From NCBI GenBank assembly GCA_037951105.1, contig JBAMJV010001805.1:71342-135341 (forward strand): 64,000 nt of DNA, read 5' to 3'. The notes beneath the pieces were generated by a model. The model ran no database searches. It was not told where the DNA came from and saw only the letters and a list, made by a program, of their open reading frames with translations. The stretch is from Echinarachnius parma (lineage: Eukaryota > Echinodermata > Echinoidea > Clypeasteroida > Echinarachniidae). Shown here one piece after another: positions 1,701 through 37,200 of the stretch. The position numbers were made by a program, and so were the translations under genes. How positions within the stretch are numbered: the stretch's first letter is position 1; each line of letters opens with the position of its first letter.

Positions 1701-1968
1701 ATTATGATTGTACACGGATCCTTGTAGACTAGCTGCTTATCAGTTTGTGATCAAACCCGAGGCCTCTGGATGGCCTGACTGGTGCTCAACCATCGGGCCA
1801 CAAAGACCAGTGAATGGGGGAAGTTCTCATGAATCCCTTTTCATTGCTCGTAAATAAATGAAATAAATAAATAAAAAGTCTCATCATGATTATTTGCTGA
1901 TCATGCTTGGTATCTCATTATCTCATATCTTATAAGCCTCCTCTCTCTCTGCTCCAGAAAGCATTATT
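1701..1968 (+). pseudogene. Decayed copy of XRN1 exon 3226-3393 with flanking intron
   Basis: The string GATCATGCTTGGT at 1900-1912 followed by TATCTCAT and a CTCTCTGCTCCAGAAAG tail matches the start of the exon at 3226 (GATCATGCTTGGTCTGATATCTCA, then CTCCCTGCTTCGAGAAG). The upstream intron is also copied: TATGATTGTACACGGATCCTT at 1703 corresponds to TATGATAGTACACTGATCCTT near 3109. A SINE-like piece sits inside the copy and a tandem array (1981-3110) separates it from the exon. The frame is broken. Confidence 0.7.
1738..1866 (-). mobile_element. tRNA-derived SINE remnant
   Basis: The stretch carries ATCAAACCCGAGGCCTCTGG, the complement of a tRNA B-box-like block, followed by 'accagtgaatgggggaag' and a CCCTTTT...AAATAAATAAATA tail. 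A second copy lies at 18222-18335 with the same order of blocks (ATCAAACCCGAGACCTCC, then 'cccttgaatgggggac'). Homology between the two copies supports a dispersed element; assignment to tRNA-derived SINEs is inference. Confidence 0.5.
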
Positions 1969-1980
1969 ATTCATTAAATA

Positions 1981-3112: not shown

Positions 3113-3225
3113 GATAGTACACTGATCCTTTGAGATAAATACATGTACCAATAAATACAAAATCTGTGAAATAATGTTTTACACTTTAGATCATAAATAT
3201 AAAATGTTATTATGATTATTTTTAG

Positions 3226-3393
3226 ATCATGCTTGGTCTGATATCTCACGAGCCCCATTTCTCCCTGCTTCGAGAAGAAGTGAAATTCGGGAAGAATGTC
3301 AAGCGACCCACGACCGTCGAGGAGACGACCTTTCACCTTCTTCATCTCTCCCTATTCAGAGAGTACCTAGCCCTGGAGTTTGCAACTCTCAAA
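3226..3393 (+). CDS. XRN1: XRN1 exon a (first in window)
   Basis: Begins after TTTTTAG, encodes 56 residues starting IMLGLISHEPHFSLLREEV and ending REYLALEFATLK, donor GTGAGT. It holds the conserved THDPHF/LLREEV and ETTFHLLHLSLFREY segments of the XRN N-terminal nuclease domain. Phase 0 at both ends. Confidence 0.93.
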
Positions 3394-6300
3394 GTGAGTC
3401 ATTTGTATAATGCGCTTGTTTTATCTTCCTAAATTAACCATTTCCTACCATAGACTAGGCTCTACAAATATTGTTTTCAGACTTACCCAGTCATAAAAAC
3501 ATAAGTTACTTGCTGGACTATAAAACATTAGACATATTTTGTCACTTTCATCAAGAGCTCTTAAATAAAGTCAGTGATCCACTTTAGAAAACTTTTGAGT
3601 TCAAGTTGATGTCTATTATTTGCTTTCAATTTGTCTATATTTCAAACATATTCTCTTAATAATTTGGATCTTTATTACTTGTCCTGGTGAGTCAAGTGTC
3701 TTTTAATTATATTTGTCTTCCATTGATGCAAGTGGGCATGTAGAGCTCTATAGAGATAGATTACATTACAGCCCTCCGTGGGTTAATTGCATTTAAAGGA
3801 AAGGGAATGGGGATGCTACACTGTGGGTCGCCATTTTCAACTAGTTAGCGCACACTGCACAACACTTGACCAAAGTGCATTATGCACCGTGCGCAAAGCG
3901 TTCACAAGATGGCAATGCGCGTCTGATTTACGAATCCGGACTACCTCTAAAAAATCATGATCATATCATTTTCTCTGAACAGGACCAGATCAGTTGGTTT
4001 AATGTGGAGAGTCTCATCGATGATTGGGTGCTCCTGGGATTCCTCGTCGGCAACGACTTCGTTCCACACTTACCCGATTTGCATATATCCCATAATGCAA
4101 TGCCATTGCTCTACAAGACGTACGCTGAAGTGCTGCCATCACTTGGTGGTAGGTTTTTCACTGTTTATTATCATTATTTTGTCTTTGTGTATTTGATCAT
4201 ATTTATTTCATCACTAATATGTTATTGCTTGTATGTTTGATATTGTCTCTTAAAGTTTATTTGATCGATACTATTACTAATGATAGTATATCTTTTCATA
4301 GAGTTTATTGTTGTTTGTAATGTTTATGTACTTAGTATACCTTAATTGTGCTTGTTATTTGTATTACTAAATTGCTTTTTATAAAAATGTTTCAAAGACT
4401 TTTAGAAAATATGAATTGTATACAGTCAAATTTTGACTTATTTAAGGTTAAACAAAAGGGAGCCAGAAAAGACCTTCGACCTTGCCAACATTCAACTTGG
4501 GCAACTTTGGTTTAGGAAAGATTTATTATATATTATCATTTTATTTTTTGCAGGTTACCTCAATGAGGGAGGATTCCTGAACTTGCCGAGATTTGAAAAA
4601 TTCATGAAGAAACTTTCAAAGGTAAGAAAATGAATATCAAACATTGAATATCTATAGATTGCTTGATATAATGTACAATCTTGTTCTACCTGCATAGTTC
4701 TTAGTGCTAATGTTAGTTTGTAGTCTCTCACATCTTGCAAGAGCCAGGACAGGAGGCTCAAAACCACTAATTATGTACAACTGAAAAGTCAGAAAATGTC
4801 AAAAATAAAGTTCTTGCTAAACGTTTGATTTTAATGCCAATCTAAAGTGCATACTTGGTAGTATATACTCCGAGAAAATGAGCACGTAATGTTACTGTGC
4901 AAGAAATGTGTGCTTCATTTTGATAAAAAGGTGTAACATACGTTACCATCAACATTTCACATGTTAGCTAGTTAGTTTCAGAGTTGTTAACTGAATGTTA
5001 CAACCATGAAAAAAAAACAATGAAGTGTTAATAAAACCACTAAAACATATTTTGTGAACATTCATCTAGTCAGGTGTCCGTTAACGATTTCCAAAGATAT
5101 GTAATTTGGCCGTAACGTATGTTTCAAATTGGTAACGTATGTTACATTTAGTGTTGTTTGAATACAATTTTGGCCTTGAAAATGATTGCTAAGCTCACCC
5201 TTAACCACATATAGATGGCGTTAACCAGTTTGCTATCAATTTAGATAGTTATTAAGTATATCCCACACACATTTGTTTACACCTGGTAACGTATGTTACA
5301 TCACCTGGTAACGTATGTTACATCATTTGGTTGATTAAGCAACATTTAGTTGAACTTAATTTTCATTTTTTGTGTGATATCAATCTACTTCATTGGCCTG
5401 AACTCCAGTAGAGTAATTTACATCATAGTGGTAACCTATATTTAAAATTCGTGGTAACGTATGTTACACCTCTTAAATCTACTATTTTATCCCGTCTCTT
5501 TCTTATATTCCCAGTCACATTTCTTTTGTATCTTGACATTTAAATATGTTTTTACTTGTATGCCATGTTCTCATCATTAGAAAAATAAGATAACTGTACA
5601 GATGTGAGCATCTAAGCATATCCCTTTATTTAGTAAGATAATGGTAACGTAGGTTTCACTAGATTTGGCGACACATTTCCAATGGCCATCAACATTTTAA
5701 ATAAAGTGGGATCATCACATTTTGTATTATGTTTCATAGAACACTGTGCTGCTGTCGTAAAACCGCACTTATTTTGCTCCTGTGTACTCTTATTTTTTTA
5801 CAAACCTGGAAAAACTGAACGATTTTGTCTTGACGACATGGGGTTTTTGATACCTCGGCCATATTCTATCCCCTGTCAATTGTTTATTTTACTTTCAATC
5901 ACTTTGAATTTATGGTTACTTTTACGAGAAGGACCCTCACTATCAAGTAAAAGTACAATTTAACTGGTGTAAAGTTAAATCTCTTCTCTAGAAGACCAGG
6001 ATCACTGGAGACACACTTTTTCACTAATGGTGCATATTTAGTGGTTTTGGGCCAGGAATGGCACTTTTAAGGAGATTTTCTCATCAAGTCAAGTCATAGT
6101 TTTACCTCTTACCTAAAGATTGATTATAAGTTTTTGTCACTTAAAGCTCATTGAAAATTCCTCCGGTTTTGAAATGCGATATAAAAGAAACATTTATTAT
6201 TATTATTATTGATGATAGCATCTGTTACGCTAACACATGCATTTCTTTCATGCTTTGTATCATCTTGAATTCATTTGTTATATATTTGTTCTCTCTCCAG

Positions 6301-9300
6301 TTTGATTATGACAACTTTGACAGTAAGGACATCGACCTTAGTTTCCTTGAAGGCAAGCAGAGTGATGAGGGCTGGAAGAGCAAACGAGTGGAGATGAAGA
6401 AGGCAATCAGAGAGAAATTACAAGAAGAGGTCAGTAATGATGAGGATGATGATGATGAGGATGATGATGAGGATGATGAGGATGATGATGATGATGTTGA
6501 TGAGGATGAGGATGATGGTGATGATGATGAGGATGAGGATGATGGTGATGATGAGGATGATGATGAGGATGATGATGAGGATGATGATGATGAGGATGAG
6601 GACAATGATAATGTTGAAGATGATGAAGATAACGATGACGACGACGACAACGATGATGATGAAGATGATGATGATTATTGATACAAAGATGATAATATGA
6701 ATGTGAACGAGAACGGAGATGGAGATTATAATAATAATTACGTAATGATTCCCTGTTTCAGATGCCAGGGTTCATGGACGTAGGGTGGATAGAGAACAAG
6801 GACATAGATGAGGCGTCAGAGGAGGAGTAGGTGGATGATATGATTATGATAATGAAGATGATAATCTTTACAATGATGATGATTACAATATTAATACAGG
6901 GATGATTATTATCTTGATTGTATTTTCAGATGCCTGGGTTCATGGACATGGGGTGGATAGAGAACAAGGACATTGATGAGGCTTCATCAGAGGAGGAAGG
7001 GGAGGATGAAGATGGTGAGCTGCTTGCATTTTCTGTTTTCTAAGTCTACAGCCAAGTCTCCACGCTAACTCGTTTTACTGCTTGCCCGTTTGGGCAAGTG
7101 AAATCATGAATTTTCAAATTTGACTTGCCCGAACAGTAAAATTACTTGTCCATTTGAAAAAAGAGAAAATCGTTTGTCCTAGGTAGCTCAATCTGCTTGA
7201 CAAATTTCTCTCTTTTTCGTAGTTAAGATTTACGCGTATGAAATTACACTTTCTCTTGTAGTTGAACAGAAATGGTAGTTGCCTGATTGGACAACCAAAC
7301 TTAACCATTTATGACATTTTACTTGCCTGACGTCAATTTTGACTTGCCCCGGGGTAAGTGCTAGTGTCGAGCCCTGCTATAGCCAATATCCATGGTCTTA
7401 CGGTGAGCTTACTTACTTACTTTACTTTGGTTTACTTTGGTGTTGAGGCTTGAAGCTTCAGCTTATGTGCCCCTCTTTACTGCATTGGATTCGCGTTGGT
7501 ATGGGCAGTATTTCTGCTGGTGGTGCTTCCAATGATTTTCAAGTTCTGATTTGAACTTATTAATAGATGAGGCATTAATGGCAGTTGTAGGAAGATTATT
7601 CCAATTATTTATGCTCCGCACTGAAAATGACATCTGCCTCATCCTTGATTTACAGTGAGGTTTCCTAATTTTGAGCCTGTGTCCTCTTGTTCTGGATTCT
7701 TTGATGATTTCAAACATGTCATTCTTCTCTACAGACTCAAATCCATGCATGATTTTGTATATTTGAAGAAGATCAGCCCTCTGTCTACGGTATTCTAGTG
7801 ATGGTAGTTTGAGTGACTTGAGCCTGTCTTCGTAGCTTAGATGTTTCACATCTGGGATGAGTCGTGTAGCTCGTTGTTGGACCTTTTCCAGTAAGTCTTG
7901 ATCCTTCAGATAAGTTGGTCTCCAGACTGCATTGCAATACTCCAGTGTTGGGCGTACTATGGTCTTATACAGTTGTAGCATGCCACTGGAACCAAGGGAT
8001 GAAAACGAACGTTTGATGATTCCCAACTTGATATTGGCTCTTTTGGATACATCAGCTACATGGGCGCAGAAGGACAGATCTGAGTCAAATAATACCCCCA
8101 GATCCTTTTCTCCCATACCTTCATCCGTTGCCACATCTTTTCTCCCGTCAGGGCTTTCCATGGTGTAGGCGAACTTCTTGTTGTTCTTTCCGTAGTGAAT
8201 CACTTTGTCACTAACACTTGTTTGTTGATTCGGGGGCCAGTAATATGGCCTGCAAAAATTAGTAAAACTTTGCAGTATTCATTGTACAGTTGAAATTAAA
8301 TTATGGCCCTTTTGGGCCAGGAATTTTTGTTTTGGGTACCATATATTATTTGACTGACTGGTTCTATGCACATTTTTCTCAAACACCCAGTAAGTTACAT
8401 ATTGGAGTTCAACTTTAACCATTCTTGTTTTCTTTTCCTATGTTAACATTACAGATCCCATAGAGATGGAGTTCAGAATGCGGAAGAGAGATTACTATGA
8501 CAACAAGATGGGATTCAAGCAGATCTCAAAGTATGAATTAAAGTTCATAATCAATCTTATATTCATGAAAATATTAATTTATGCACACAATTATATAATG
8601 TAGCAATGCAGGATCAGTTTAATGAAAACATTAAATTATACACACAATTATATGATGTGGCAATTCAGAATCAATTTCAATTAATGTCTTTCTTTCATGA
8701 AAGTATTCAATTGCAGTAATAATAATATAATAATAATAATATATTTGCAGTAATAATAATAATGGTAGTATTCCAGCATTTATATTGTGCCATGAATCTA
8801 GATATTCTATTCTGAGGTGTATCATACCTTACAGGATAGTATTACCCAGATATAATGTGAAAATATTTCTTAGACTACCCATTGGCTGTGTTACTACTAT
8901 CAACATTCGAAGGGCTATTGAATCATAATTTGGGGTCTAGATTCAGAGCTGATTCGATAATTTCCAAACTAGATTTACACTTTGTAAGTATACAGGGATG
9001 CCAGTATGCAGGCAAAAGCCTTAATTGGGACTTTGTTCACCTAGAAATTCAGGCTTATTTGTTCCATTTTCCACACAGATCACCTGGGTATAATGGCACA
9101 ATGTCCACGCTCTCATCTTTTAGTTTACTGGCATCCCTGCATATATCATTCTTGTTCCTAGCACAATAATGTCATGCTGATTTGAATTAAATCAAAAGCA
9201 AACCTTTCATTTAAATATTAAAGGGATATTTCTCTCTTTTATTTTCTTCTTTATCTATCAGAGCACAGCGCTTTCAGATTGTGAGTGACTACATCCATGC

Positions 9301-12300
9301 TATACAGTGGATATTACATTACTACTACAATGGCCTCCAGTCATGGAGTTGGTAAGTACACACACTGTTTGTTTGTTTGTCTATTTGTGTTTGTATTGTA
9401 TGACATATTTACTGGCAAAGGCAAAACTAATGAGCCAGGTACTGTGACTGTGTGGCTTGAGGGCTGATGAATTTTAGATGAGATACCCTATGGTCCAGGC
9501 TTCAGAAGGACCTTGACCTTGATCTCAATTTTTTGTTCCTTTGTTTGTCCAGGGACTATCCTCACCACTATGCGCCCTACATGCCTGACCTCAAAGATTT
9601 ACTGTAGCCATGTTGCCTCGGGTCAAATAAAGTAGAGAAATGTGACAACCTGTGATCTTGAGGGCACTAGAACTTTATCTTGATCTTGATTTCAATTTTG
9701 TTTTCCTTTTTTTGTTTCCATTTTTTGTCCAGGTACTATCCTCATCACTATGCGCCCTACATGTCTGACCTCAAGGACTTCAGTGACCTGCAGTTGACCT
9801 TTGATAAAGGTGAACCCTTCTTCCCATTCGAGCAACTGATGGCTGTCCTGCCTCCTGCGAGTAAGGACCACGTTCCACCGGCCTTCTGGGTGAGAACCTG
9901 TCTTTTCTACCTTTTGTAGATCGTTCAAAGTGCCTGTTGATTCCATACCATATCTTATATCATACCCCTAAAAAAGCCCATTGATTCCATTCGTAGTGGA
10001 AGCGTTGTCGTGTAGTGGATTAGGCTCCCATCTTTAAATGCAAGGGTCTCGGGATACCCAATGTCTTCTACTCTTCAGCAAGGTACATTATTTTGCATTG
10101 CTACCCTCCACTCAGGTGCATAGAGCATTTGTGTGCTTCTAAATTAGCACCGGCTAGAATGCTTCCGGGAAGGGTTGAGAGTACATGTTATTTGCAGGAT
10201 TGATAGTAGATGTATAATTTATTGACCAAGATGACCAAGGTACTAATATAGGTTTTCCCTGCCAAATTCGTCAAAATAGCGGGCATATTCATATGTCATT
10301 CAAGTTCGCGTGATTTTTGTAAACCTGCTGTTTACACTGTTCAATTTTAAACTCCAGAACATTCATCTTCGTCAAATTGCATTAAGTTTTTACCGACAAC
10401 GTATTCAAATTGGTTAGAATGTCAAACAATTTGGCAATACACATCCGTCATTCAAATTCGTGCCAGTTTGCTTGACCTTAGATTTCGGACCGATTTGGGT
10501 TTTCTATTTCGTTTTCAGGCGTCCTTCTTAGCACATCTAGCATTCAAATAAGAATGATCAGAACATACAGGATGATGCAGTATGAAGGTGGGGGGTGGCA
10601 ATTTACCCTCCTATTTCCCATTATTCCATCACTCCCCAACCACCACTCCCACCCTAGGCAGCTTTTTTTTTTTATTTTTTTTTTTTAAGGTCATTTCCTA
10701 ATCTATATTTTTCTTCATTCTGTTTTTTTTACGACTTATTTTCATCTTTCTTTTCACATTTGAACTGGTAACTGTAATGTAATGTCATGGCATGCACTTA
10801 TTTCATGTTTTTATATATTTCATATATTTCCATTTTTCACACAGTGTTTAGCCTTGGGTCATTTCTTAACCCTAATCCCACTGGGGGGGGGGGGCCTTTT
10901 TGGCCCCCCCCCCCTGTCGTTTTTTTCGATGTGCATCTAGACCGTTTGGAATTTCATGTTCAAACTTCATGACTATTTTCTATCAAGTCTCCCGCATGTT
11001 TTGATATATAATTCACCCCGGTCGGACCTGTAGAACTGATTTTAGAGGTGGATAATTGCTCGTCCGTCACAAAAAAATGTAATTTTTGTACAGGTTTCTA
11101 TGTAATTCCTATATCCGATGCCATGTTATCTCCAAATCTGTTATAATTGTTACTTTGAATTATAATTTGGATTATTTCTTTGTTATTAGTTGAATTCATA
11201 CACTTCAGAGATAAATTCTTCTTAAAAAAACTAACAAAAACAAACAAAAAAACAATAAAATACATAAGAATGAAAACAATGTGGATAAATCCGGGAATAC
11301 TAATTTGCATATTTATGCAAATTAGTGATATATTTTATCACCATAAAAAACATTGATATGATGAATTACATCATTTTAAAGTATTTGTACAGAAAACCTG
11401 AAGAAATCCTGTAATTTCTTTTGATTTTAGATGAAAATCCCAATTTTGTCCCAAATTCGTCAAAAATTTGCATATTCAAAATTGTAATTAATTATAAAAA
11501 AAAAAATAATGGTCCATTTTTTTTTGTTTTTTCATATTCTTATTCTACTTGACTTGTTTTACGTGTGTGCTAATTTTCAAGTCGATCGGTCCATTCGTTG
11601 CCGAGATTTGAGGGGGGGGGCCAAAACAGCCCGACCCCCCAGTGGACTCAAGTGACCAAAATAACCCAGTGGGATTAGGGTTAATCTATATTTGTCTTTT
11701 TTTCTGTTTATTCAAAGACTTATTTTAATCTTTCTTTTAAGATACACGCTGCTAAGTATATTGTTCATATTTTTACATTTCAACTGTTAATTGTTATGTA
11801 ATGTTATTTCATACACTTGTTTCATGTTTTGATTTGATTTGATTTGATTTGATTTTCATCATATGCATATACTTTATTTTAATCACAGTCTTTAGTTTAG
11901 TCATCAGGGGTGTATGTCTTATTTTCATCCATCAATCTCTTGACGAGCCAGGCATCTCGGCATGTATGTTTGGCTGTGGTTATACCACTGAGCGCACTTG
12001 GCGGCTGTGATGACATCGATTCTCTGTTCAGCGATCTCTCGTAGGATGTCGCACCTCCACTGTTGCATAGTGACTCCTGCATTCTGCGCTGCCTCTCTGT
12101 CTCCAAGCCGTCGTTGTTGAGCAGGCTGTGCTAGTGGCCTCTTCACAGCTGAATGGGACATTTCTGTCATGTTCAAAAACGGAGAGTAAGGCGGCAGCAG
12201 TTTCGTCTCGACGTTGTGGTCTCCATCAGACAGTTGGGTACGAACATGAGGTCTGGCATTGTCGTAGATTAAGTAGATTGGCTCATCTTCCGGAAACATG

Positions 12301-15300
12301 AGCTCACACTCAGCGACCGTTGCTGCGAGGAACTGCTCAAAGCTGTTCCTCATCACGGTCTCGAAAGCGATTTGGTGATGCACGAGGCCGACACCACCTG
12401 ACACGGCGAATGTTACATTGCAGTTGCGCCCCCTCTGCCCTTCAACCACTCTTCTCGCAGGGATGCCGCGTTGAGCCCTTCCCTTGGTACGCCTTGTCCA
12501 AACGTTATAGCCGGTCTCGTCTATGAAGATGCAATTTCCAAGCACGCCATTCTCCAGAAACCACTCAGCTGCTGTAGGACACGCGGTGAGTTTCTGGCCA
12601 CCGGAATATCTTCTGTCAACTTGAGGGTCATCAACATCCCATCCAGCGTCCTGGCGATGGTGGAAGTAGACACTTCTGGCTTGTCCGGAAGATTGTCCCT
12701 TAGGCTTTGCCTCATCTGCACCAAGGTGAGGAGGGGGTTCGCATCCAATATTTCTTCCAAAATATCGTCATCCATCTTCACGTTGCGTGCCCCGCCCCTA
12801 AGAAGTTGTTCTGTTCTATTCCACAATAGATCTCGCTGTCTGACGTTTTATGCCAAGATTGTCCAAGTTCCAAGTAGTCTTGGGCATTGCCTGGGAAGGC
12901 TTCGACGTCGATCGACATTAGTTATGATGTGGTAACGGACTCGAGCTGCCAGGACTCACTCGATGTTCAAACTTTGATATGTGCTAAGAGTACTAAGTGT
13001 TGCTCTTACTACGAGATCATAAAGTGAAATGGAAGTGTATAGGCCTACTCCTATAAAGCAACACTCTCATTTGTACGAAACGCGTGAGTAGCTTTATAGG
13101 AAAACAATACAACTAAATTGATGAATAGGATTGCGCACATTCCAAAGATGTTCGCCCTTAGACGAAATAGAATTTATAAACGCCTACATTTTACCTTTAT
13201 AGACGAAATCGAATGCTCTTCACCCGATTTTAAAAGATGAATGGAGTTATTTCAATTCGGTTTGACACAAGTCGGCAATCGCACAGTCCAAAAATCAAAT
13301 TGAATGAAATCATTTGCTAATTGAAACACGATCCTGATCTTCATTCAATTTCATTCTAAATTGCGTGCTGTTAATGACCATTTGAGTGCTATATTGACGA
13401 AATTGGGCGGGAAAACCTATATTAGACTCATGGCCCTCTGGGAAATCAGAATGAAATATTATTATTTTATTCATTATTTTAGTTCAGTTTTTTTCTTTTC
13501 ATTTATTTTTTCTTCAATGATACAAAATGCATGTACATCAAATAATATTTGTTTACCTGTGAATATTTTCTGGAACAACTATTTTGTCAAACCATTGTAG
13601 CAATCACTGCATTTAAAAAAAGAATGGTTAATAAACTCTGCCTTTGTTTCACATTTAACTCACAGCCTCTGATGATGAATGACACATCACCCATCCTTGA
13701 GTACTACCCCCTGGAGTTTGAACAGGATCTCAACGGCAAGCTACAGGCCTGGGAAGCCGTGGTACTCATTCCATTCATCAATGAGGTAGGAGATGATGAT
13801 GATGAAGATTATAATGGTGATGATGATGGTTGTCGTAGTTTGGATGATGATGATGATAATAAAGAGTTGGAGTAGGATTGTGATGATGGTGGTGGTGATG
13901 ACAATGATTACGGTGATGATGGTTGTTGGGTTAGAATCTGAATGACATGCCGCAGGAGTGGGAAGGTGTGGTCCTCATCCGATAAATCAATGAGGTAGGA
14001 GAGGAAGGACGCTGAGAATTAAGGATTGTGATGATGATGTTGGTTTGGTTAGGTGCTGATGATGATGACAACTACGATGCCGATGATGATGGTGACAATG
14101 ATGATGGTGACAATGATGATGCAATGTCGATGATGATGGTAGTGGTGATGGTGATGATTGGGATGATAATGATGAGGAGGTGGAGACGGTTATTTATTTT
14201 ATTGATGATTATTTGAACAATTACATATACAGGGTGTCTCATAAAGAATGCAACACCTACGATCCTTCATTTTATCAACATCATCGACCAAATGTCATTG
14301 TTTTTTGTTTGATTGGTTAGAACGTTCTTTTTCCAACAAGATGATACCATAAGCATTGATTTTGGGTAAGGCGTTTGGATCCTAGGGCCATTTTTCTGAG
14401 GCAATGTCGTTTCTTAAATTTGCTACTATTTCGTCTCTGGCGATCCTCTGAACACTGAGACATTCTTGCCCCACGGCCTCCCATAGACAGAAGAACTGCA
14501 TGACTGCTCTCCCTTTGATAAGGAAGACAATGTGAGCCATACTGTATGGGGTACTTGATTATGCAACATTGTCTTCTTTATCAAAGGGAGAGCAGTCATG
14601 CGTTTCTTTTTCTATGGGAGGCCTTGGGGCGAGAATGTCCCAGTGTTCAGAGGTCGCTGGAGACGAAAAAGTAGCAAATTTAGGAAACGACATTGCCTCC
14701 GAAAAATGGCCCTAGGATCCAAACGCCTTACCCAAAATCAATGCTTATGGTATCATTTTTGGGGAAAAAGAATGTTCTACCCAATCAAAACAAAAACAAT
14801 GACATTTGGTCGATGATGTTGATAAAATTAACGATCCTAGGTGTTGCATTCTTTCTGAGACACCCTGTATAATAATAATATAATGATGATTATGAGTCAA
14901 TAAAACTGAACACTACTGATTGATTTCCAGGATCGCTTGTGGGCAGCTATGAGGATGTATGATCACAAGTTGAAACCAGAAGAGAAGGCACGGAACACGC
15001 ATGGTCCTCACAATCTCTACACCACTGACACATCAAACCCACACACATACACCTCATCACTACCAGGGGCATTCATGGACATACGCAACTGCATAGCAAA
15101 GTAAGAACACCATATCATTGGTTGAGAAAGAAAAGAGCACTAAGTCACCTGTACTTCTGAGATAATCATGTACAAAGTTGTGGAGCTTGTAGAAAACCCA
15201 ATATAGCTCTCTTTTATTTTTGATGAATATTCACAAAAATTGAAATAATTATTAACTGAAAATGTAAAACTGCGTAGAGAAGGCTCCGTCCTGCAAGATG

Positions 15301-24300: not shown

Positions 24301-27300
24301 TGCATTCTCAACTTAGTGTACATGTGACCTGCTTCACATCAAATGTATGTGAAGAGCTTCATGGTTAAAGGGAAACAACACCCAAAATTAATGTTATTAT
24401 AAATGAAATGTAATAGTTTTAGTAGTCCATTCCACCAACAAGTACAGAAAAATTGGTTTCCAGATAAATTATATAATTTGAAAACCCTTCTTTTGTTGTG
24501 CTTCTATTGTCTCCCAAACAGATGCGGGTATAGAATTGATGCACTCGTTAGTTATGGTTGCTAGTTATTTGTGGTACAGTAGTCTCTGCTTTATGGAGTC
24601 ACATTTAATGGAGTACACCTGTTAAAAGGGTAGGAGTTGACCAAATATTTCTTGTTCATCACTTAATCAGGAGCACCTGTTAAGGGGAAAATATGCCTTG
24701 CTAAAGCCTACCCAATTAACCTGTTCACTACTAGATTCTAAAATCTCTATTGACTTTTTATACAACTCACCCGGTTCCCTTAGTCAATGGGTTAAGGAAA
24801 GACCACTATAATAATATTTGATGTATGCCCTTTGTTCATATCAATTACCTAGATTTCCAGCAGTAGTGAGATTCCTGAATGGCAAGGGATTCAATGAGGA
24901 CCTCTATGAAGAAGAGATTGTTTGCTGGTGTTGATTATAACCTAGATGATGATATTTGAATGGCTGTCATATCGCACTAGAGTTTATAAGGACTTCAGTG
25001 TCAAGGTCGCCATTTATTTGTGATAATTGTATTAAAGCATGCCCTTTCTTTCATATCAATTACCTAGATTTCCAGCAGTAGTGAGATTCCTGAATGGCAA
25101 GGGATTCAATGAAGACCTCTATGAAGAAGAGATGTTTGCTGGTGTCGATTACAACCTGGATGATATCAAGAAGTGGATCGAGCAGCAGCCTTGCAGCAAA
25201 GCTCCCAAGGGAAAGATTGGCTCCACCGACTTAGAGGCCCCAATCATTAGCCTAATAGAAGAGGAGGTCGAAAAGGTACAGTTTGACTAGTTTTATTTTA
25301 TTTCAACTAGTGACTTTTTTAATAGTGTAATAGAAAATACAGTAATTTCACCATGATGTTGATAGTACATGCACAAAGTAAAATGCAGGCTGGAGCCCAA
25401 GGGAAAGATTGGCTCCACGGATCTTGAGACCCCAGTCATCAGCCTGATTCAACAGGAGGTTGAGCAGGTACACTTTGACTAGTTTCATTTTTATTTCATG
25501 TACATATTTTATAAATGGCATAAAGGAAATACCTTGTTATAACCATGTAAATTCACAAGTTAAGAGTTGGCTAGAGCAGCAGCCTTGCAGCAAAGCTCCC
25601 GAGGGAAAGATTGGTTCCACCAACCTTGAGACCGCCCCCCCCCCCCCCCCCCCCAAATCATCAGCCTGATTTAACAAGAGGTGGAGCAGGTATGCTTTTG
25701 TTGATTTAATTTAAAACTTTGAACTTCAGAGAAAATCATGTTTAAAGTGTGGGAGCCCTGTAGAAAAGCAAATTAGTTCTATTTAATTGTTGAATAGATT
25801 AATAGATGAATTTTCCCCAAATTATGAATAATTATGATCAATATAAAGATGTGGCATCTCATAGTTGAGGCTCAAACCTACAAGATGGTGTGCAAAACTC
25901 AATTTAGCAAAATATTTCCTTAACACCCTTCTCACTCTCACCCGACAAAATGTGGATCATTAAAATTGTATCTTTACTTGACCTTTCATTTTTTGTTGTA
26001 CGTTGTACTTTGCAGGTCAATAAGGCTCCAAGCAAGAAGAGGGTCAAACTCTCAGTCAGACCACATCTCCTGTTCAGGGTAAGTTCTACACTATATGTTC
26101 TGTTGCATAATAAAACCACACATTATGGTTTATGGTCAATATAAGAGGGTCAAACTCTCAGTCAGACCACATCTCCTGTTCAGGGTAAGTTCTACACTAT
26201 TTGTCTGTTCCATTTATATAACATACTGTACATACCCACGTGTATAAATGGGTACCTGGTCTGGTGAAAATTACCCTTGTGCACCTTTCTGGTTGCCACG
26301 GCTAGTATGCTCCCTGGGAGTTGAGAATGTGTACAAGATAATTGTGCGGGTCTGAACTGTACCGAATGACCAGTGATAAAAGTAATGAAAGTGCTTACAA
26401 ACTATTCGGCATGAGGTGCTTTACAAATGTGTCATATCAATATGAAGATGGTTTGTAGTTGCTTGGTCTATAACCATTTGGTCTTCATCTTACATGATTC
26501 CTCAATTTTCCCAACCCTGATCCCAACCCTAGTCTCAACCTCTAACTCTAATCATACTTCTTAATCCTAACCCTTAACCCTATCTTAACTTGGGGGGGGG
26601 GGACGGACAATTAGCAAAAATTAGGGTACTTCGGTAATGAATATGCGCATAATTTGCATATTTAACATTGAATCGTTTAAACGAAAACCTGAACACTTCG
26701 CTAATACTTCAATGTACCTCCATGCAAAATTTCGCGTGAATCGGACAATCGGTCTTTGAGATCTTGGGGGGGGGGGGGGTCAAATTGACACCCCCCAGTA
26801 TAAACCTGGTCCGAAATAGCCCAGTTAAAATAGTGTCAAGCCTTTAAATTATGATTTTGTGAGTAGATGAAATGGGTGTAGACCAAGTGTTAAGTTACCT
26901 GCAGGATTAGTTACCCACTGGGTGCGTACAACTAATTCAATGTATATTCATAACTATCTTCGTAACTTTTTCCACCATAATCCACATTCCAAATAATGGT
27001 CTGCTTGTAATATTTGGCAATGCAATGCAGAGCCGCTTTGATTTTTGGAATTAAATGGAGATTCCTTCCCAGTTGAATGGGAGGAATCAAGAGCAAAAAT
27101 CTGAGCAGAAACGGTAGAGCAACAGACAAATTATGAGAGTTTTAACTTTGTCGAGAATGAACACTCGTGTGTTTAGTTTGTAATTGCTATAAATCATGAT
27201 AAATCATGACAATAAAACATAGATTATACTTTACCATGTAAGGGGGGATTTCCCTTTCGTCAATGAAAAAGTTTGAAATTAAGGAAAGTTATCTTTTGTT

Positions 27301-27951
27301 TGCTTCTCTCTAGCCCATGAATGGAATGGGTAACCTCATCCCGGACCCTGACGCTACCTACTCACTGTTTGATCGCATCATCAACGTTAGAGAAGGCTTC
27401 ACCGTACCCCTGGGCCTGCGTGGTGTAGTCACAGGCATACAGACTGGTAAGTAATACATTCTTGTTTTTTGTTTTTTAACCAATTTTTCTTTAAATCTAT
27501 TCTTACTTGAAAAGGATTACCGTTATTATAGTTGTATCCATTCTATCTAGCAGTACACTTATTTAGAAGCTCATTCTAATTTGCAACAAAACTATCCCTT
27601 TTCATGAAGATTTTTTTTTTTTTCCAGGGGCAACCGTTCTGGACACGCTGTACGACGTTGTGTTTGATGAGGAGTTTGAGGGCGCCCTAGAACTGCGGTG
27701 TACCGGCAAGCGAGGCTACCGCATGCCCCCAACAGCCATGATCAACATCTCGTTTGGACAGAAGAAGGTCAAAGGTCAACAGAAGTATGAGAAGTCCACT
27801 GCTGTTGTCAAGCCGCAGGTTAGATATTGACTTTATTGTTTTACTTTTTTAAGGTTGGTGACAGAATTTGTGGAGAAAGCATTTTTTACAAGAATTGTGA
27901 TGATTAAGATGGTGGCAGTGGCGGTGGCGATGACGATGATGATAATGTTGT

Positions 27952-27986
<35 letters not shown>

Positions 27987-28015
27987 CCGATGATGCTGAT
28001 GATGCTGATGATGAT

Positions 28016-28058
<43 letters not shown>

Positions 28059-28185
28059 ATGATGACGATGATGATGATGATGATGAGGATGGTGATGATG
28101 CCGATGATGATGATGCTGATGATGATGATGACGATGATGACGATGATGACGATGATGATGATGATGATGATGATGATGGTGATGG

Positions 28186-28216
<31 letters not shown>

Positions 28217-31200
28217 GGTGATGGTGATGATGATTATGATGGTGATGGTGATGATGAAGATGATGATGATGATGATGATGTTCTTTATAGTAGAGATCAT
28301 AATGAGGAAGAACATTGATGATATTTGAACATTCAAATCTGAAATAGTTCATTGACCTATTTCACAATCAGATGAATCTAATAAAGGGTGATGTTCATGG
28401 TAATAATTATATTTTTATAATTGTTATTAACAGGTGAAGCAAATAGGGCCAGACACGAGCGGACACACACAGAGTCATGACTACTACCAGAACCGCATGG
28501 CCAGACTAGGATCACCAGGTGCTGCTCAACAAACCAGGGGAGCCCAGCAGAAGGGACAGAGTGACTATCAAACCAGGGGAGCCCAGCAGAGGGGACGGAG
28601 TGACAATCAAGAGGCAGCCAATCAAAGCAAGGTAATTGTCAGCATCCACAAAATTAACTCAGAACTCTAGCGGTTCTCACATGCCTCGTATAGAAGCATG
28701 GAACAGGTTTCAGTTTTCTATAAAAAAATTAGTCACTAAGATATGTATGATTGAAGTGTTTAGAATTTGAAATTCTCCAATGGAGAATTTCAACTGTCTA
28801 TAACGTCAGTGCAATGAGTTAGTGAAGATAATTTTGCATTTTTGTTCTTTACTTGAATCTCATTTACCATAGAATATCAGATCACAGAAGTACACATTTT
28901 ATCAACCCTTTGACAGTTTTTGCACAGGTCAACAAAGTTATGTTTGTGTCTTATAATTACATATCTAACCTTGTAAATTATGGTTAGTATACAGTTTTGG
29001 TAAGTCAAAATGAATGTCGGCCATTTTTGTGTTCATTTTCCATGATTTAGATGTATGCGAGCACCAACGTAAGGGAGGATTCGAGCGGCTCTCCAATATC
29101 CTACGCTGCTGCCACCGATAGCTCCCAGCCGAAGCCAGCTGTAACCCCAGCATCAAGGCCAGCAGCGTCTGCCAAGCAACCAGCCTCTGGCATGCAGGCC
29201 CTGGGTAAGATTCCTGGAGGCAAGGCCGGCGGGAGGGGTGAGAGGCAGAGGCAAGAGCAGAGGAACTCTCCCGTCCAATCCCAGGACAAGAAGGTCATCA
29301 TCCTGAAGCGCAATCAGAAAGTACCTGCCACCCAGCAGGGATATCAAGAAGCAGTAGGATCTACCACCAGCCAGAGGTTAACAGAAGACAGTGGCACAAG
29401 GGCACAGCAGAATATGGCTAGTCAGAGAATAGCCGGAAGCGGCAAGCCGAGACAGCCTGCTGACAAAGAAAGGACTACTAGTGCCTCTGCCAAACCTTCA
29501 GCTAGATCTTCTGCAAGAGTGGGTGTGAAGGAACAGAATGACGAGAAAGTAATCGTAAGAACAGCAGTTTACGAACGGAGCACTAGAGATCCGAATGAGA
29601 GAGCAGCTGAAGAGATAAAACCAAAGGACTCCCCGTCAGCCCGGCTACCCCGCCTGAGCAGGGAAGGAGGGTTGGAGGTCAGAGAGGAGGAGCGGATGGG
29701 GGAAGGGGTGACAGCAGGAGTGGGAGAAGTGGATGAACTGTCTGCCATCTGGAGCAAGCTGATGAAGGTGCAGGAGTCAAGCCCAGCTAGGAGTGATAGC
29801 AGTCCTGGGAGAGGCGGACCAGGGGAGGAGAACAAGCAGGTCAGTTCAGTTTGATTTATACATTCAAACCTGTCTAAGTAGCCACCTGTCTATAGCAGCC
29901 GACTTGCCTATAGTGGCCACCAAAAGTGTTCCCCTGTAGACAAAAACAGTGTGATGGAACCTGTCTATAGAGGTCACCTGGCTACAGTGGCCAATTCTCT
30001 TGTTTCCCTTAGGTGCTCACTATAAATCTGTAGTTGTCTTCCTTTATCTTTTGGCTTATTCCAATTATGGATAAATCCTTTTCCTCGAGTGAGACAGAAT
30101 CTGTATTGTGTCCCTCCTTCTTATCTTCTTGCCCCTTTAGCGTATCCCAATAAGAGATATATCTCCTCCTAAAGGAGCCAATGAAGTATTTGTTGTCAGC
30201 AGGTGGCTTGAATCCTGATGTCATTACATATTAGATATTTTTAAAAGATATTTGAAGACATATTTACATGTATTTTTATGCCTCCGCCAACGAAGTGGCC
30301 GGAGGCATTATGTTTTCGGGTTGTCCGTCCGTCCGTCCGTACGTACGTCCGTCCGTACGTACGTCCGTCCGTACGTACGTCCGTCCGTACGTACGTCCGT
30401 CCGTACGTACGTCCCGTTTTCGTTCTCACGATATCTCAAGAACCGATTGACGGATCAATTTCAAACTTGGTATGAGTGTACATATTGGGGTGACAATGAT
30501 CTGATTAGATTTTAGGGGTCATGAGGTCAAAGGTCAAGGTCACAGGACTCAATATATATACAAAAATGCCTTGTTCTCGCGATATCTCAAGAACTGGTTG
30601 ACGGATCAAATTCAAACTTGGTATTAGTGTAGATATTGGGGTGGCAATGATCTGATAAGATTTTGGGGTTCATGAGGTCAAAGGTCAAGGTCACAGGACT
30701 CATGTATGTGCAAAAATGCCTCGTTCTTGCGATATCTCAAGAACCGGTTGACTGATCAATTTCAAACTTGTTATGAGTGTAGATATCGGGGTGCCACTGA
30801 TCTGATTAGATTTGGGGGTCATGAGGTGAAAGGTCAAGGTCACAGGACTCAATATGTATGCGAAAATGGCTTGTAATGGCAACATTTCAAGAACTGAATG
30901 TCAGATTTCAATCAAACTCGGTACCTGAATGCATCATAAAGAGTCAACGTAGCCATAAAATGTTGGGGTCATGAAGTTGAGGTCAAGGTCACGGGACTCA
31001 TTATACATGCAAAAAAGCTTGTAATGCCAAAATCTCAAGAACTAAATGTCAGATTTCAATCAAACTTGGTACCTGAATGTTTTTTAGGGAGCCATCAAAG
31101 ATTGGGGTCATATGGTCAAGGTCACAGGACTCAAAATATATGAAAAATATATTTTTAAATTAAATCAGTGCATGTTAATTTGGGCTTGATATTAAAATCG

Positions 31201-34200
31201 TGTGATAGCGGAGGCATAATTTTCGATTGCGCGCAATCGAAGATCCATCTAGTTATTGTAGGTTATTGGAGAGGTTGTAATGCGCATCGATCAGTTTTTT
31301 AATAAATATCAAATATTATTATTATTATATTATTCCACCAAAAATTATGTGCATGCAATCAAATGTGCCATATATCAGGAACGGGTAAAGATGAAATGAA
31401 GTATGTAATGTATTTAGATTGTGTGTCCCTCGAAGTATGGCCTCAAGACAGACCCAATTATGATTGATAATTATCTCTTTGAATTGCTTCACAAATCCTT
31501 GACAAATCTTGACAAACACTAAAACAGGTCATATCTGATGTAGCCATGACGACTGATAATGTTTTTTGAATAATCATCTCTAAGAAACACTTCAACAAAT
31601 GTGTACATATATTCATTAAAACAGGTGATATCTGATGCTACCATGACAATGGATGATGCTCTGTCGGAGGAGGAGTATGTGACCAGCATGGGATCAGAGG
31701 AAGGTGAAGAGAGTGATGAAATGGAAGAACAAGATGAGATGGAGAGAATGACTCCTAATACATATAGAAATGTAAGTGTTTTTAATCCTTTGAGAACAAT
31801 ATTTGGAATAATCCAAATAGTAACAGTAACAATTATAAAATGGGTAGAAGAATCCCTGCATTCTGATTGGTCAATTAGCGTGTAAAAGTTTTTACTGATG
31901 CATTTTACTTATGCATTTTACTGATGCATGGCTCACTTTAGTTTGAATTTCGCATTTTTTTCGCCCATTTTATTTTTTAAATGCTGCACAGGCATATTTC
32001 GTGGATCGGTAAGAATTGTCTGCACTCTTTTAACTTTGGAAATAGTCTAAAACCCACACCATTCCAAAGTTCTGGTGCATCCAATTCTTACCGATCCACT
32101 CAAGCCTGTGCATCATTTGTATAATAATGACTCCCGAAGCTAAGAGCATTTAATCCACTATGAAAAATTATTGGGAAATCCAAATTATATCATTAGTTCT
32201 GCTCAGTACTGGGTCCTGAAAACACTCGGGCATAGGTCTATGGAGAATGAATATTATACCAAAATCAAATAATTTTGAAGGGGTTAACATTGTTTCATGC
32301 AAAACAAATCATTCTTCTCCTTCTGGTCAATCTAATTTTTGCAGATAGATTGAAAGATTTATGTCTCAAATATACAATTTGCTGATGTATAAACAGCATT
32401 ACAAATGCAAGGGGACTAAAGTACAAATAATGAAAGAATACTACAAGATAGTCCTTCTGTCTATACCGTAATCATTTGTTCAAGTAAGCATCTTTTTTAA
32501 ATAACAGTGTAACAAAATAATACAAAAGAAAAAGTAGCTTTCTTACAAAAAAAACTGACATAATTCTTCAAACTATGCAAAATATGTGTGTTTGGCAAAA
32601 TGTAAATTGATCCCATTCTTTTATTATTTTGATTTTTGTTATCATTTTCAGTCCCAGACAGAGCAGCTGTGTCGTCTCCTCAACATCACCAAACCCAATG
32701 AGAGCAGAGAGGATAGCGGCGTGAACACTCAGAAGCAAGAACCAGCAGTGAGTGCCTCATCAAAACCCAGCTACACAAAGCAGGTCTCTGTCGCTGAGTT
32801 ATTTGGTAAGTTTGTTAATGAATTGTAAGTTTTAATTGTTTAATTTTTGCTCAAATACTCTTCTATTTCTCTCTCTTTTTCTTGTATATATTGATACTTA
32901 ATTGTAAGATTGCACTTTATAAGAAAGGATTATTATTATTATTATTATCATTAATCTAGGCTAGTTAGCTTCAGTACCATGAGAGAGAAGAAGGACTTCC
33001 GTATTAACCTTTTGAGAGTGAAAGAAGTATGTCCTTACTCCTCACTATTACCTCCCCCCTTCCTCCCCCTCCCCCCTCACCCCACTCCACAAACTTAAGT
33101 AATCAGTCGAGATCTTTGATTTGAAAGTAGCCCTCTTGAAATATGATTTGATTAATAGGATAATCATTGAAATCAAATGATGTGTTTTATTTTATTCATT
33201 ATGTTTATTGATTTTGTGCACCCCTTTTTCAGAGTCGGCAAAGAAGACAGGCAGCCACCCAAGGAGTCCCATCAATCTCCCCCAGGGTGGGGTCATGATG
33301 CAGTCAAAGCCCCTGGGTCATGTTGCCCCCCATCTACAACCCCCTCCCAACCTCCCACCAACCTCCCTCATGGGGCCCCCACTCCACAAGCCTCAGCAGA
33401 GAGGGCAACAGACGCAGCCCCCATTCATGGTTGGACAACACCAGCATGGTGGACAGGTGGTCCCAGTGGCTACCAGCATGGCACAGCTACCGCCCTCATC
33501 CCACCAATCCATGCAACCCTTCTTGGTGCCTTCACCCGGCAAACAGCAGCATGCAGGACAGATGGTGCAAGCACCTGTTGGTGTCGGTATGGGCATGGGG
33601 CATCCGCCCCCACCGCAGCGCGTGGGACCAACTTCCCCACAGAAGCCCTTTATACAACCTGCTGCACCCCTCCCCCCAACGAGTGCCTACGGACAGCACC
33701 CCTTCCAGCCCCAGCCACCGTTCGGTATGCAGGGCCCACTACCAACCAACCCGAAGGGTGTCCACCGACCCCCTGGACCACCGATGTCTGGCCATGGACC
33801 CATGCCACCTGCCATGGTAGCCCCTGGGCCTGTGCCTCCCATGATGGGCACCTGGTTCCAGCCTGGATGGGGACCTGCGGGACCTATTGGGCCACCAGGG
33901 CCACCTATACCACCGGCCACTGAGACACTCAAGGGATGGTGCCTGGCTCAGAAGCTGCCCCCGCCGAAGTTTGCGTTCTCTAAGCTTCCACAGGTAACTT
34001 TCAAGCTCATACAGATTTGGTATCTACGATTGGTGTACATAGTTTGTCTCATTGGGCCTGTCAGTTCAGGGTTTATGCATCTATTTATGTAGATCCTTTA
34101 TTTAAACATCATCAGACTTTGATGAATATGAGAAGTTCAACGTTTGACAATAAATAGAACATACTACATTGTATGAATGGGGAAGTACATGTAGCTAGTA

Positions 34201-37200
34201 TTAGAAAGAGTGCTATAATATATGAAGCAAAGTTGTTGTTTGATTTGGGGGTACAAAGAATAGTAAAATGTGTGTAGCCTTTGTAATGGCATCAGTTATA
34301 AGGGGCTCCCATGTCCTGCAGAATCAATGGAGAGGAGATCAATGGAGTTGCTCCAAATAAATCTAGCGTGTTACTAATATTACAGGGATGTAAGTTTTCC
34401 GGATTTTGACGGAAATCCGGATTTTTTATAAAATTCCGTTTTTGTTTTTGTTTTGTTTTTTTTTTTGATCGACAAACGTGTCTGTAATTACAATCAAAAC
34501 CTATCCATCATGTTACTAAAAACTGCAAAGTTCAAAGGCAAATTTGCAAAATTTTCCTGCAGGGCCCTGCTATGGGGCAAGGGCGCTGCCCCTGCAACCC
34601 CGCCAGGGGGCTACTGCCCCCTGGACCCCCAGTTTCTGGATTTTTTTTTAGCTCCACTTACATCCCTGATATTATTGTTTGTGTGGTTGTTTGTGTGATT
34701 TACAGGGCATGGTGAAACCTGTATGCATCCTGTGTAGTGACATCAGTAATGAGGGTACTCCCTGCCCTTTATAATTCATGGCCGTAGAAATCAATACTCC
34801 CCAGGGAGTGGAGATGGTGCACACAAACCAAACATGTTACTAATAGTATTGTTGTTTAACTCTTCATGTACAGGGCATGGTAAAGGCTGTATGCATCCTG
34901 GGTAGTGGGATCAGCTATGAGGGTCCTCCCTGCCCTGCGGAGTCCATGGCTGTGGAGAGAGCTGCCGGTGTCGCCTTACACAAACTGGTATGTCCAATAC
35001 AATTTGTCTTCTAAATAGCATTTCTTGCAGACTACAACTTTATTCATAAATTACCTGTGAAACATTATGTACATACAATATATGATATATTCCCATTCTT
35101 ACTGATAAAGGGCACAATTGTTTCTCTCGTCTTACGCACATATGAAATATGAAATAAATTAAAATGAGCGAATAAAATCTGACTTGGCCATGAATCCATT
35201 TGTTGTCCAAATGAACCTACCTCTAAACCTTGTAATTGCTATAAGTTACATTCATTCTTTACTTTTCAGCACATCCTACCAATCCACCAGTATGTTGGAG
35301 CTCCCATGCATGTGGGACCAGCAGGAATGAACCCCCCAGTCAACCCCAACATGAGGGCCCAGGGCATGCAAGTACCCCCTGGATACAGACCAGGTAAGAA
35401 AGACGCCCCCCCCCCCCCCCCCTTCCACCTTTCTCCTCCCTAGCTGTGCCCTAGCTACAAGCCCAAGAAAGCATGAACAAAAGTCATTTTGAGGAATACC
35501 ACAGTGCATTTAATTCAGTGTATGCTCCCCAGGGAGTTGAGAAAGTACGCAATATCATTGTGTGGGGTTGATATGAACATGATGACCATGGGCAATAATA
35601 ATTTAAGTAATTATTTAAGCGATTTGAACATTATATATGGAAAATGCACTATAAACATGAAGAATTATTATTTTTTATTATTTTAGGTCAGTTACTCAAG
35701 AATAGTCGGTTCTTTTTAGGACTCTGGCATCACCTACTCACTTTCAACATGGTTTCACAGAAAATCACGAGTGTGTAAGGAGAATTTGTAACTGGAATGC
35801 TAATGCTTAAATCCAGAGATTTTCATATGCAAAGTTTGGCCAATTTGACTTAAACATGGCTCTTACTTTTAACCCATTGAAGACAATTTGAATTTGGTAT
35901 CATGCGCATTTACCATATATCTCAGCCCAACTTGTTCATTACTAGTCATGAGGAGGTCAATATAATATGTGCTTTAATTCAGCCTTGTTTACTCTTTGAG
36001 TATATAGCATGTACTGGTATTTTCATTCATGCTTCCACCTCTCTCAAATTATTGAAAATGAAACGTTGTAATGAACCTCAATAAAATCCTGTTACAATAA
36101 CAAGTAGTTTATTTCTACATTTGTTTTGTCTCTAGGCACGAGTCAACCCATGATGGTACCCCGCCCTGGTTACCAGCCTTCACAGCCTGCCCCACCCCAG
36201 GGACCACCCCAGGGACCACCCCAGGGGTCACCAGCTTCAAACTGGGGGAACTTTGTACCCCTCCAGGTGATTAATACATTTCTCTACTACCGCTGTCTCT
36301 TTCATTTTCCTCCTGTTGCTATGCGCCTTGGAATAGGTTGTCTAGATAGACAACGCTTTTGCTTGCTATTTATTTGTATTTATGATACTGATGATATACC
36401 TGGGCCTGTTGCATAAAGTGATACACTAGATTTTAAGTTCCAATTAATTATAAGTCAGATCATGTGATCTAAATGCGCAAATCTGATTGGTTGAAACGCT
36501 GAAATAATCTGACTTACCATTAATTATATTTTACAATCAATTGTATCTCTTTCTGCAATGGGGCCCTGGTCTAGCAACCACACATTTTATGTCCCACCCC
36601 AGGGGCACCCCAAAGGTCACTAGCTGCAAAGTGGGGAAACTTTCATTGATCCTCTTCAGGTGATTAATACTGCTAATACTGCTTTTTATAAGCGCAGTAG
36701 AGTATATATTTATAGTAGCTGCGCTATACAAATGTTTGTATTATTATTATTATTATCCCTAGAAAGCAGTTTGCATGTAAAGGAACCTGTCTATAAATAG
36801 CTTCTGCTCACAGAGACCACTTATTGGGTCCTGCTTGGGTTTGACAGTCTTTATGGAAAGTAAGAAGTGGCAGTAAGAAGTAGGTAGTAATATGTAAACA
36901 ACAAAATATTTTTATTTTCTTTCAGGTAACCAAACAGTTGGCTACAACCCCAACCAAAGTGCCACCAGGTTCAACAGAGACTACAAACATGGCGCCAATG
37001 TCAGCAGCAAACCCCGCTGCATTCTCAGCAGCATCAAACGTCAACAATGTCATCCCAACCACTTCTCCACCCAGTACCACCCAAGCTGGATCAAACCGGT
37101 CTAGGCAACTCGACTTCAGCGTAGCTCCGGACGCAAACGTGCCAAACAAGCTCTCTGAGATTGCTCAGGTCGCACCGGACATTCCAGCACAGGGGGGTAT

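What the first reader, a model, noticed from the sequence alone, without database searches (positions are those of the whole stretch)
1701..36672. Local decayed duplicates accompany nearly half of the XRN1 exons
Partial or whole copies of exons a, e, h, i, k (three), l, n, o (two), p (five extra), q, u (three), v, aa, ad and af lie in adjacent introns, same orientation, 80-400 bp away (a is now 1.4 kb away), usually with flanking intron and splice site. Divergence ranges from nearly identical (u, v) to barely recognisable (a, l), so duplication seems to be an ongoing process over long time rather than one event. Such a trail over a single conserved housekeeping gene is not something I know to be described. 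It could reflect local tandem duplication in this genome at large, seen here because the gene has conserved exons to align.
Basis: seen in the sequence. Interest (0 to 1): 0.88.

Follow-up and report, generated by a model that had tools for sequence, protein, structure and literature searches.

The report
Decayed tandem exon copies, genome-wide
In this sea-urchin genome short stretches of DNA are often copied next to themselves, so that about half of the exons of a housekeeping gene carry decaying partial copies in the neighbouring introns; the same is seen in the other conserved genes that were checked, so it looks like a habit of the genome and not of this one gene.

Summary
The gene is XRN1 of an echinoid (72% identical to Lytechinus pictus). 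I mapped 33 exons at 3226-37342; 16 have a same-strand copy within 1.5 kb at p<0.01, against 1 of 33 on the opposite strand and 8 of 231 distant windows. Not an assembly artefact: of 16 exons compared, copies recur on contig C2309 for 15, and on the more diverged C4564 for 9 of the 13 comparable. Copies drift like introns (95.1% and 94.8%; exons 98.4%), and none of 26 keeps both splice sites. XRN1 is not special: its paralogue has copies at 7 of 15 exons, three chaperonin loci and one adaptin locus were confirmed in DNA, and six random 10-kb stretches hold 21 local direct repeats, with 15 inverted. Best explanation: frequent, neutral, local tandem duplication, visible longest at exons because one copy is conserved. 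In 19 of 33 events the copies abut within 9 bp. Open: unit lengths pile up at 120-220 bp (39 of 64), and exons are hit 1.5-2 times as often as my neutral model predicts.

The parts
3226..37342 (+). XRN1 gene, 33 mapped exons a-ag (the first exons lie upstream of the window on the same contig)
   Evidence: spliced alignment to L. pictus XRN1; XRN1 homology to solved structures 2y35 and 9e70
1900..1959 (+). copy of exon a nt 1-51 (43/50), 1.27 kb upstream; on A, B and C (on C 180 bp from the exon)
   Evidence: p=0.0007, not significant
6762..6831 (+). copy of exon e nt 1-71 (63/68), with acceptor-like AG; unit about 187 bp head to tail; on A and B, not found on C
9555..9639 (+). copy of exon h nt 3-82 (67/76), with acceptor AG; on A, B, C
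13933..13994 (+). copy of exon i nt 59-120 (46/62) with donor GT; unit 209 bp head to tail; on A, B, C
15747..16424 (+). tandem array of the first 81 nt of exon k plus upstream intron, period about 177-185 bp; the last copy belongs to the real exon (16344-16470); extra copies on A and B, not on C
16822..16912 (+). copy of exon l nt 1-91 (62/89), the most diverged clear copy; on A, B, C
17849..17903 (+). copy of exon n nt 26-81 (46/55); on A, B, C
19169..19197 (+). short copy of exon o nt 38-66 (24/29); a second at 19804-19830 (22/27)
   Evidence: p=0.0013 and 0.0072
20055..20560 (+). 82-bp tandem array made of the 3' half of exon p, its donor and intron; 5 extra copies here, 3 on B, 3 on C
21160..21204 (+). 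copy of exon q nt 70-112 (36/42); on A and B, lost on C with a 77-bp deletion
24853..24950 (+). copy of exon u nt 1-97 (93/97) upstream of the exon, with acceptor AG; on A, B, C
25396..25463 (+). copy of exon u nt 137-204 (58/67)
25537..25633 (+). copy of exon u nt 82-172 (78/88)
26143..26184 (+). copy of exon v nt 22-63 (42/42) with donor; contig B lacks exactly one 106-bp period here
31473..31658 (+). 103-bp head-to-tail repeat that overlaps the start of exon aa
34260..34338 (+). copy of exon ad nt 4-85 (60/78)
34706..34788 (+). copy of exon ad nt 1-83 (66/83) with acceptor AG
36594..36643 (+). copy of exon af nt 69-119 (43/50)
5035..5347 (+). intron-only local direct repeat, offset 168 bp
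21768..21968 (+). intron-only local direct repeat just after exon r, offset 149 bp
58281..58657 (+). intergenic head-to-tail repeat, unit 186-192 bp, far from XRN1

Best explanation
This echinoid genome undergoes frequent small local tandem duplications: a stretch of some 100-430 bp, most often 120-220 bp, is repeated beside itself in the same orientation. Where a unit contains all or part of an exon, one complete exon survives between intact splice sites; the other copy holds one splice site at most, is presumably skipped, and then decays at the neutral rate or is deleted, at times by exchange between the repeats. Because the surviving exon is conserved, an exon-copy pair diverges only about half as fast as a pair of intron copies, so exon duplications stay visible longer and look like a trail over the exons. 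Shown: presence, orientation, recurrence on separate contigs, drift like intron, occurrence in the other genes looked at, abutting copies in 19 of 33 events. Inferred: that the events are neutral mutations of the whole genome, that the copies are skipped, and the molecular step that makes them.
For: 16 of 33 exons with direct copies vs 1 of 33 reverse. Copies on C2309 for 15 of 16 exons and on C4564 for 9 of 13 comparable. An orthologous copy of an N-terminal exon in XRN1 and on four XRN1b contigs. Contigs A against C, rows where C lacks the copy and the p array left out: copies 857/901 identical, introns 2648/2793, exons 241/245; with all rows 1601/1730, 4150/4485, 403/419. Other genes: upstream XRN1 exons 2 of 4, XRN1b on C1804 7 of 15, on C472 2 of 6, reverse 0 of 25; chaperonin copies at three loci, alignment scores 66, 98, 60 vs 13.5, 13.5, 9.5 reversed; adaptin 73 vs 10.6. 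Six random 10-kb stretches: 21 direct events of offset <=450 bp; XRN1 21 in 34.4 kb. Ungapped scan: 98 events in 204 kb, 0 in one shuffle. Copies abut within 9 bp in 19 of 33 events. Partial copies mostly look as tandem duplication predicts: copies upstream of the exon begin at exon nt 1-4 (a, e, h, k, l, u, ad; exceptions m, n), and among those downstream i, p and v reach the exon's 3' end with a donor (o, q, af and two u copies stop short of it).
Against: Exon-touching events are more frequent than my neutral, uniform model predicts: 14 of 20 (15 of 21 with one inside exon y) against an expected 33-45%, P=0.0008 to 0.023 (parameters are my guesses). In 14 of 33 events 18-123 bp of unaligned sequence lie between the copies, and in the window only 5 of 11 abut; the exon-b copy in XRN1b on C1804 has some 90 bp of unrelated sequence before the exon, so many are not, or no longer, clean head-to-tail units. 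Local inverted repeats are also common (15 within 450 bp in the 60 random kb against 21 direct; 6 against 6 in window 38.5-64 kb), so by that method the direct excess is clear around XRN1 (21 to 7) and modest elsewhere. No gain of a simple new unit was caught in the A/B/C comparison apart from changes in array length.
Confidence: 0.82

Rival explanations
1. The copies are alternative (for example mutually exclusive) exons kept for function.
For: Some are nearly intact: the e copy has an acceptor and 22 mostly matching codons before a stop; the k copy 15831-15909 an open frame with an acceptor; the p copies keep donors.
Against: Between contigs the copies change like introns (95.1% and 94.8%; exons 98.4%). 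None of the 26 copies listed keeps both an acceptor and a donor.
Confidence: 0.04
2. Assembly error: haplotypes or reads merged into false tandem copies.
For: The assembly keeps several versions of the locus apart (C1804, C2309, C4564), and the v copy is absent from C2309.
Against: Copies 10-30% diverged are unlikely to be merged alleles; copies of a, h, i, l, m, n, o, p and u recur on all three contigs.
Confidence: 0.03
3. Exon-directed copying: a repair or RNA-templated process that preferentially copies exon pieces into the adjacent intron, not a general tandem duplication.
For: Exon-touching events in excess of the neutral model; some visible copies hold only the inside of an exon (n, m, o, af); unaligned sequence between the copies in 14 of 33 events.
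Against: Blocks at e, i, k, v and ad include flanking intron; abutting units without any known exon occur in intergenic DNA and random stretches.
Confidence: 0.1
4. Repeats born from transposable elements with internal tandem repeats.
For: The 157-bp (2101-3062) and 150-bp (30420-31220) arrays share the string GGTCAAAGGTCA, and the second matches other stretches.
Against: The exon units are made of XRN1's own exon sequence; units at i, n, p, u and v had no match elsewhere in the DNA compared, those at e, h and ad 1 to 3 (XRN1b is part of that DNA).
Confidence: 0.03

Closest known systems
Tandem exon duplication (Ivanov and Pervouchine 2022, PMC9013439; abstract, introduction and results sections read)
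   Same: An exon copied within its own gene, with unannotated copies in introns.
   Different: They report about 2% of human, 0.08% of fly and 0.06% of worm exonic nucleotides with a homologue at >=80% identity; here the nearest figure for one gene is 1144 of 5736 nt, 20% (my method, not theirs). The copies here are partial and seem dead.
[quoted passage not shown] seen only as a reference title, content recalled)
   Same: Duplication inside genes as a common mutation.
   Different: Here mostly 120-220 bp units, many per gene, mostly without visible effect on the coding sequence.
Minisatellites / VNTR
   Same: The exon-p array changes by whole 82-bp units between contigs.
   Different: Most exon loci here show only one or two extra copies.
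Flap-ligation duplications of Okazaki fragment maturation (PMC12632346, preprint, passages read)
   Same: Ligation of an unprocessed 5' flap of the downstream fragment gives duplications.
   Different: Known from mouse cells with altered FEN1 methylation; nothing links it to this genome except unit size.

Membership tests
Local tandem duplication | same orientation, close by | tested here: met
   16 of 33 direct vs 1 of 33 reverse
Local tandem duplication | copies abut head to tail | tested here: inconclusive
   19 of 33 events with <=9 bp between copies, 14 with 18-123 bp; window 5 of 11
Local tandem duplication | not limited to one gene | tested here: met
Mutually exclusive exons | copy has both splice sites and an open frame | tested here: not met
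   none of 26 copies
Mutually exclusive exons | copy under purifying selection | tested here: not met
   copies change like introns
Mutually exclusive exons | inclusion in mRNA | not testable with these tools
   no RNA data
Assembly artefact | absent from other contigs that hold the locus | tested here: not met
   (one exception: v on C2309)
Okazaki/nucleosome-sized duplication | unit length near nucleosome repeat | tested here: inconclusive
   39 of 64 units at 120-220 bp; nucleosome spacing of this species unknown
Okazaki/nucleosome-sized duplication | junctions at fragment ends or linkers | not testable with these tools
   no chromatin or fragment maps

The most novel reading that the evidence does not exclude
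The genome carries a chromatin-scaled duplication process: units cluster at 120-220 bp with a smaller group at 300-412 bp, about the lengths of one and two nucleosomes or Okazaki fragments (recalled), and exons (nucleosome-rich in other animals; recalled) are hit 1.5-2 times as often as expected. Head-to-tail copies would be made when a displaced Okazaki fragment is ligated instead of cut, and the conserved exons act as a fossil record of that error.
Probability: 0.2. Interest if true: 0.8.

Novelty: new variant of a known kind. Interest (0 to 1): 0.5.

Why it matters
A conserved exon with one dead copy beside it is a clock: it dates a single duplication event for longer than introns can. A genome where half of a housekeeping gene's exons carry such copies would let the rate, size and age of short tandem duplications be measured gene by gene, would test whether their size is set by chromatin, and warns annotators that partial exon copies with single usable splice sites are common here.

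Tried and rejected
Rejected: alternative exons, assembly merging, transposon origin (see rivals). The first exon map, from a general animal XRN1 profile, missed exon e and the 3' exons; replaced. A first count on 23 exons (14 of 23 at p<0.02, none reverse at that level) is superseded. An early flank alignment with cheap gaps was too loose to use for flank identities. One search used a score threshold and did not list the a copy on C and the q copy on B; searches show them. One search counted rows where contig C lacks the copy; one search gives the tally without them and without the p array. I first read the exon-v difference as a new duplication in the window; the sequences fit a deletion on B between the repeats better. 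Gene conversion at the N-terminal exon-2 copy (54 of 54 identical) was considered, not tested. Junction microhomology was not measured. Profile matches in other families are lower bounds; I used them to find places, not to give rates. Papers: searches; among the titles and abstract starts listed none describes such a trail or nucleosome-sized tandem duplication; most subscription journals are not in the library. Recalled, not looked up: nucleosome-sized Okazaki fragments in yeast, nucleosome enrichment on exons.

Full report
What the gene is. A draft protein from window frames matches XRN1 of solved structure (2y35 E 4.5e-158, 9e70 E 1.7e-129). With a longer draft the best hit is XRN1 of the sea urchin Lytechinus pictus, 72% over the core; next come brittle star, sea cucumber and starfish at 49-52%. 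The organism is therefore an echinoid, not close to Lytechinus. Spliced alignment to the Lytechinus protein gives 33 exons at 3226-37342 (long exons that the alignment had split were merged; three pieces before 3226 in that alignment are poor and were dropped). The window is C1804:71342-135341 of a 1.2-Gb assembly of 14,790 contigs.

Not an assembly artefact. The same locus lies on C2309 (B, 98% over the first 17 kb) and on C4564 (C, 93% where aligned; allele or recent paralogue, not decided). Of the 16 exons compared (a, d, e, h, i, k, l, m, n, o, p, q, u, v, ad, af; ac was not), B has a copy for 15, all but v. On C 13 are comparable: a, h, i, l, m, n, o, p and u have a copy (o one of two, u two of three), d, e and k have none, q is deleted. 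The p array has 5, 3 and 3 extra units on A, B and C. For v, ad and af no orthologous exon was found in the part of C fetched.

How the copies behave. A against C, without the rows where C lacks the copy and without the p array: copies 857/901 (95.1%), introns 2648/2793 (94.8%), exons 241/245 (98.4%); with all rows copies 1601/1730, introns 4150/4485, exons 403/419. So copies drift like introns. None of the 26 copies listed keeps both splice sites; many carry stops or frameshifting gaps. At least one predates the XRN1/XRN1b split: the N-terminal exon-2 copy sits at the same place in XRN1 and on four XRN1b contigs. Copies of h, k and m have counterparts in XRN1b at similar exon parts, side and distance, which suggests the same for them.

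It is not only XRN1. Upstream XRN1 exons: 2 of 4 with copies; XRN1b on C1804: 7 of 15; XRN1b on C472: 2 of 6; reverse 0 of 25 (p<0.005, plain shuffles). Among 92 chaperonin (PF00118) matches three places show a second, partial match beside an exon (read from the table); the DNA confirms all three. Among 69 adaptin (PF01602) matches such pairs lie on C5025, C4320, C867, C4579, C13941 and C1699, some perhaps allelic, those on C4579 more than 1 kb away (read from the table); one, C5025, was fetched and confirmed. An RNA polymerase locus on C6478 shows one with a stop among 16 matches (not fetched). Six 10-kb stretches chosen by contig number hold 21 direct events of offset <=450 bp (2 to 6 each) and 15 inverted; XRN1 3-37.4 kb holds 21 and 7; window 38.5-64 kb 6 and 6; the XRN1b stretches 16 and 8, 10 and 7, 7 and 1. 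An ungapped scan of 204 kb (window, six random stretches, XRN1b loci; partly paralogous, arrays counted more than once) finds 98 events, none in one shuffled version.

Form of the units. I realigned 33 events with gaps, chosen by me from the stronger ones; some are allelic or paralogous. The copies abut to within 9 bp in 19 and leave 18-123 bp in 14; in the window 5 of 11 abut (by construction the block cannot exceed the offset, and no shuffled control was run). Unit lengths by the tile method: 39 of 64 at 120-220 bp, 11 below, 4 at 220-300, 10 at 300-450, three of these ten from one stretch of C1500; by the ungapped method after merging, 27 of 53 at 120-220 bp. Short units of period up to 9 or 15 bp were masked and short old units are harder to see, so the lower flank of the peak is less sure than the upper.

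Are exons targeted. I simulated uniform neutral tandem duplication with conserved exons and decaying copies, scored as the window was. Visible events should touch exons in 33-37% of cases, or 42-45% if 30% of the intron is taken as too young to count (an earlier version gave 34-35%). Observed by my reading against the exon map: 15 of 21, or 14 of 20 without the repeat inside exon y; P from 0.0008 to 0.023. The visibility argument thus explains much of the trail, not all. The model's indel rates and the 30% are guesses.

Mechanism. Most likely neutral local tandem duplication, one functional exon kept, the rest decaying or removed by deletion between repeats (v). What makes the units is open. 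Ligation of unprocessed Okazaki flaps gives duplications in cells with altered FEN1 methylation (PMC12632346, passages) and would suit nucleosome-sized units; this is a lead only. The exon-b copy of XRN1b on C1804, with unrelated sequence beside it and an empty counterpart on C472 and C5479, shows that some events are less simple.

Noticed in passing
contig C1804 about 21700-51700 (L020-L022, L028), C472, C5479, C99: A second XRN1-like gene (XRN1b) lies upstream of XRN1 on the opposite strand, with diverged exons and versions on other contigs; whether it is active is unknown.
   Followed up: partly
20055-20560: The exon-p array repeats a donor site every 82 bp (gtaaac/gtaagc), a row of possible decoy 5' splice sites whose number differs between contigs.
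   Followed up: partly
28530-28610: A 39-bp tandem repeat inside coding exon y gives an in-frame repeat of 13 residues.
   Followed up: no
19172-19742: An insertion of about 550 bp with inverted ends, present in the window but on neither of the other two contigs; looks like a recently moved small DNA transposon.
   Followed up: no
2101-3062 and 30420-31220: Two arrays with 157-bp and about 150-bp periods sharing GGTCAAAGGTCA; the second matches other stretches compared. The first lies between exon a and its copy and is absent on contig C, where the copy is 180 bp from the exon.
   Followed up: partly
L019:7308-7361 (C1804:68650-68703): Copy of 54 nt of an N-terminal XRN1 exon still 54 of 54 identical, although the copy is also in XRN1b; possible gene conversion from the exon.
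   Followed up: partly
20968-21760 (exons q, r): These two exons are only 88-92% identical to contigs B and C, while the other exons compared are 95-100% identical to B; unexplained.
   Followed up: no
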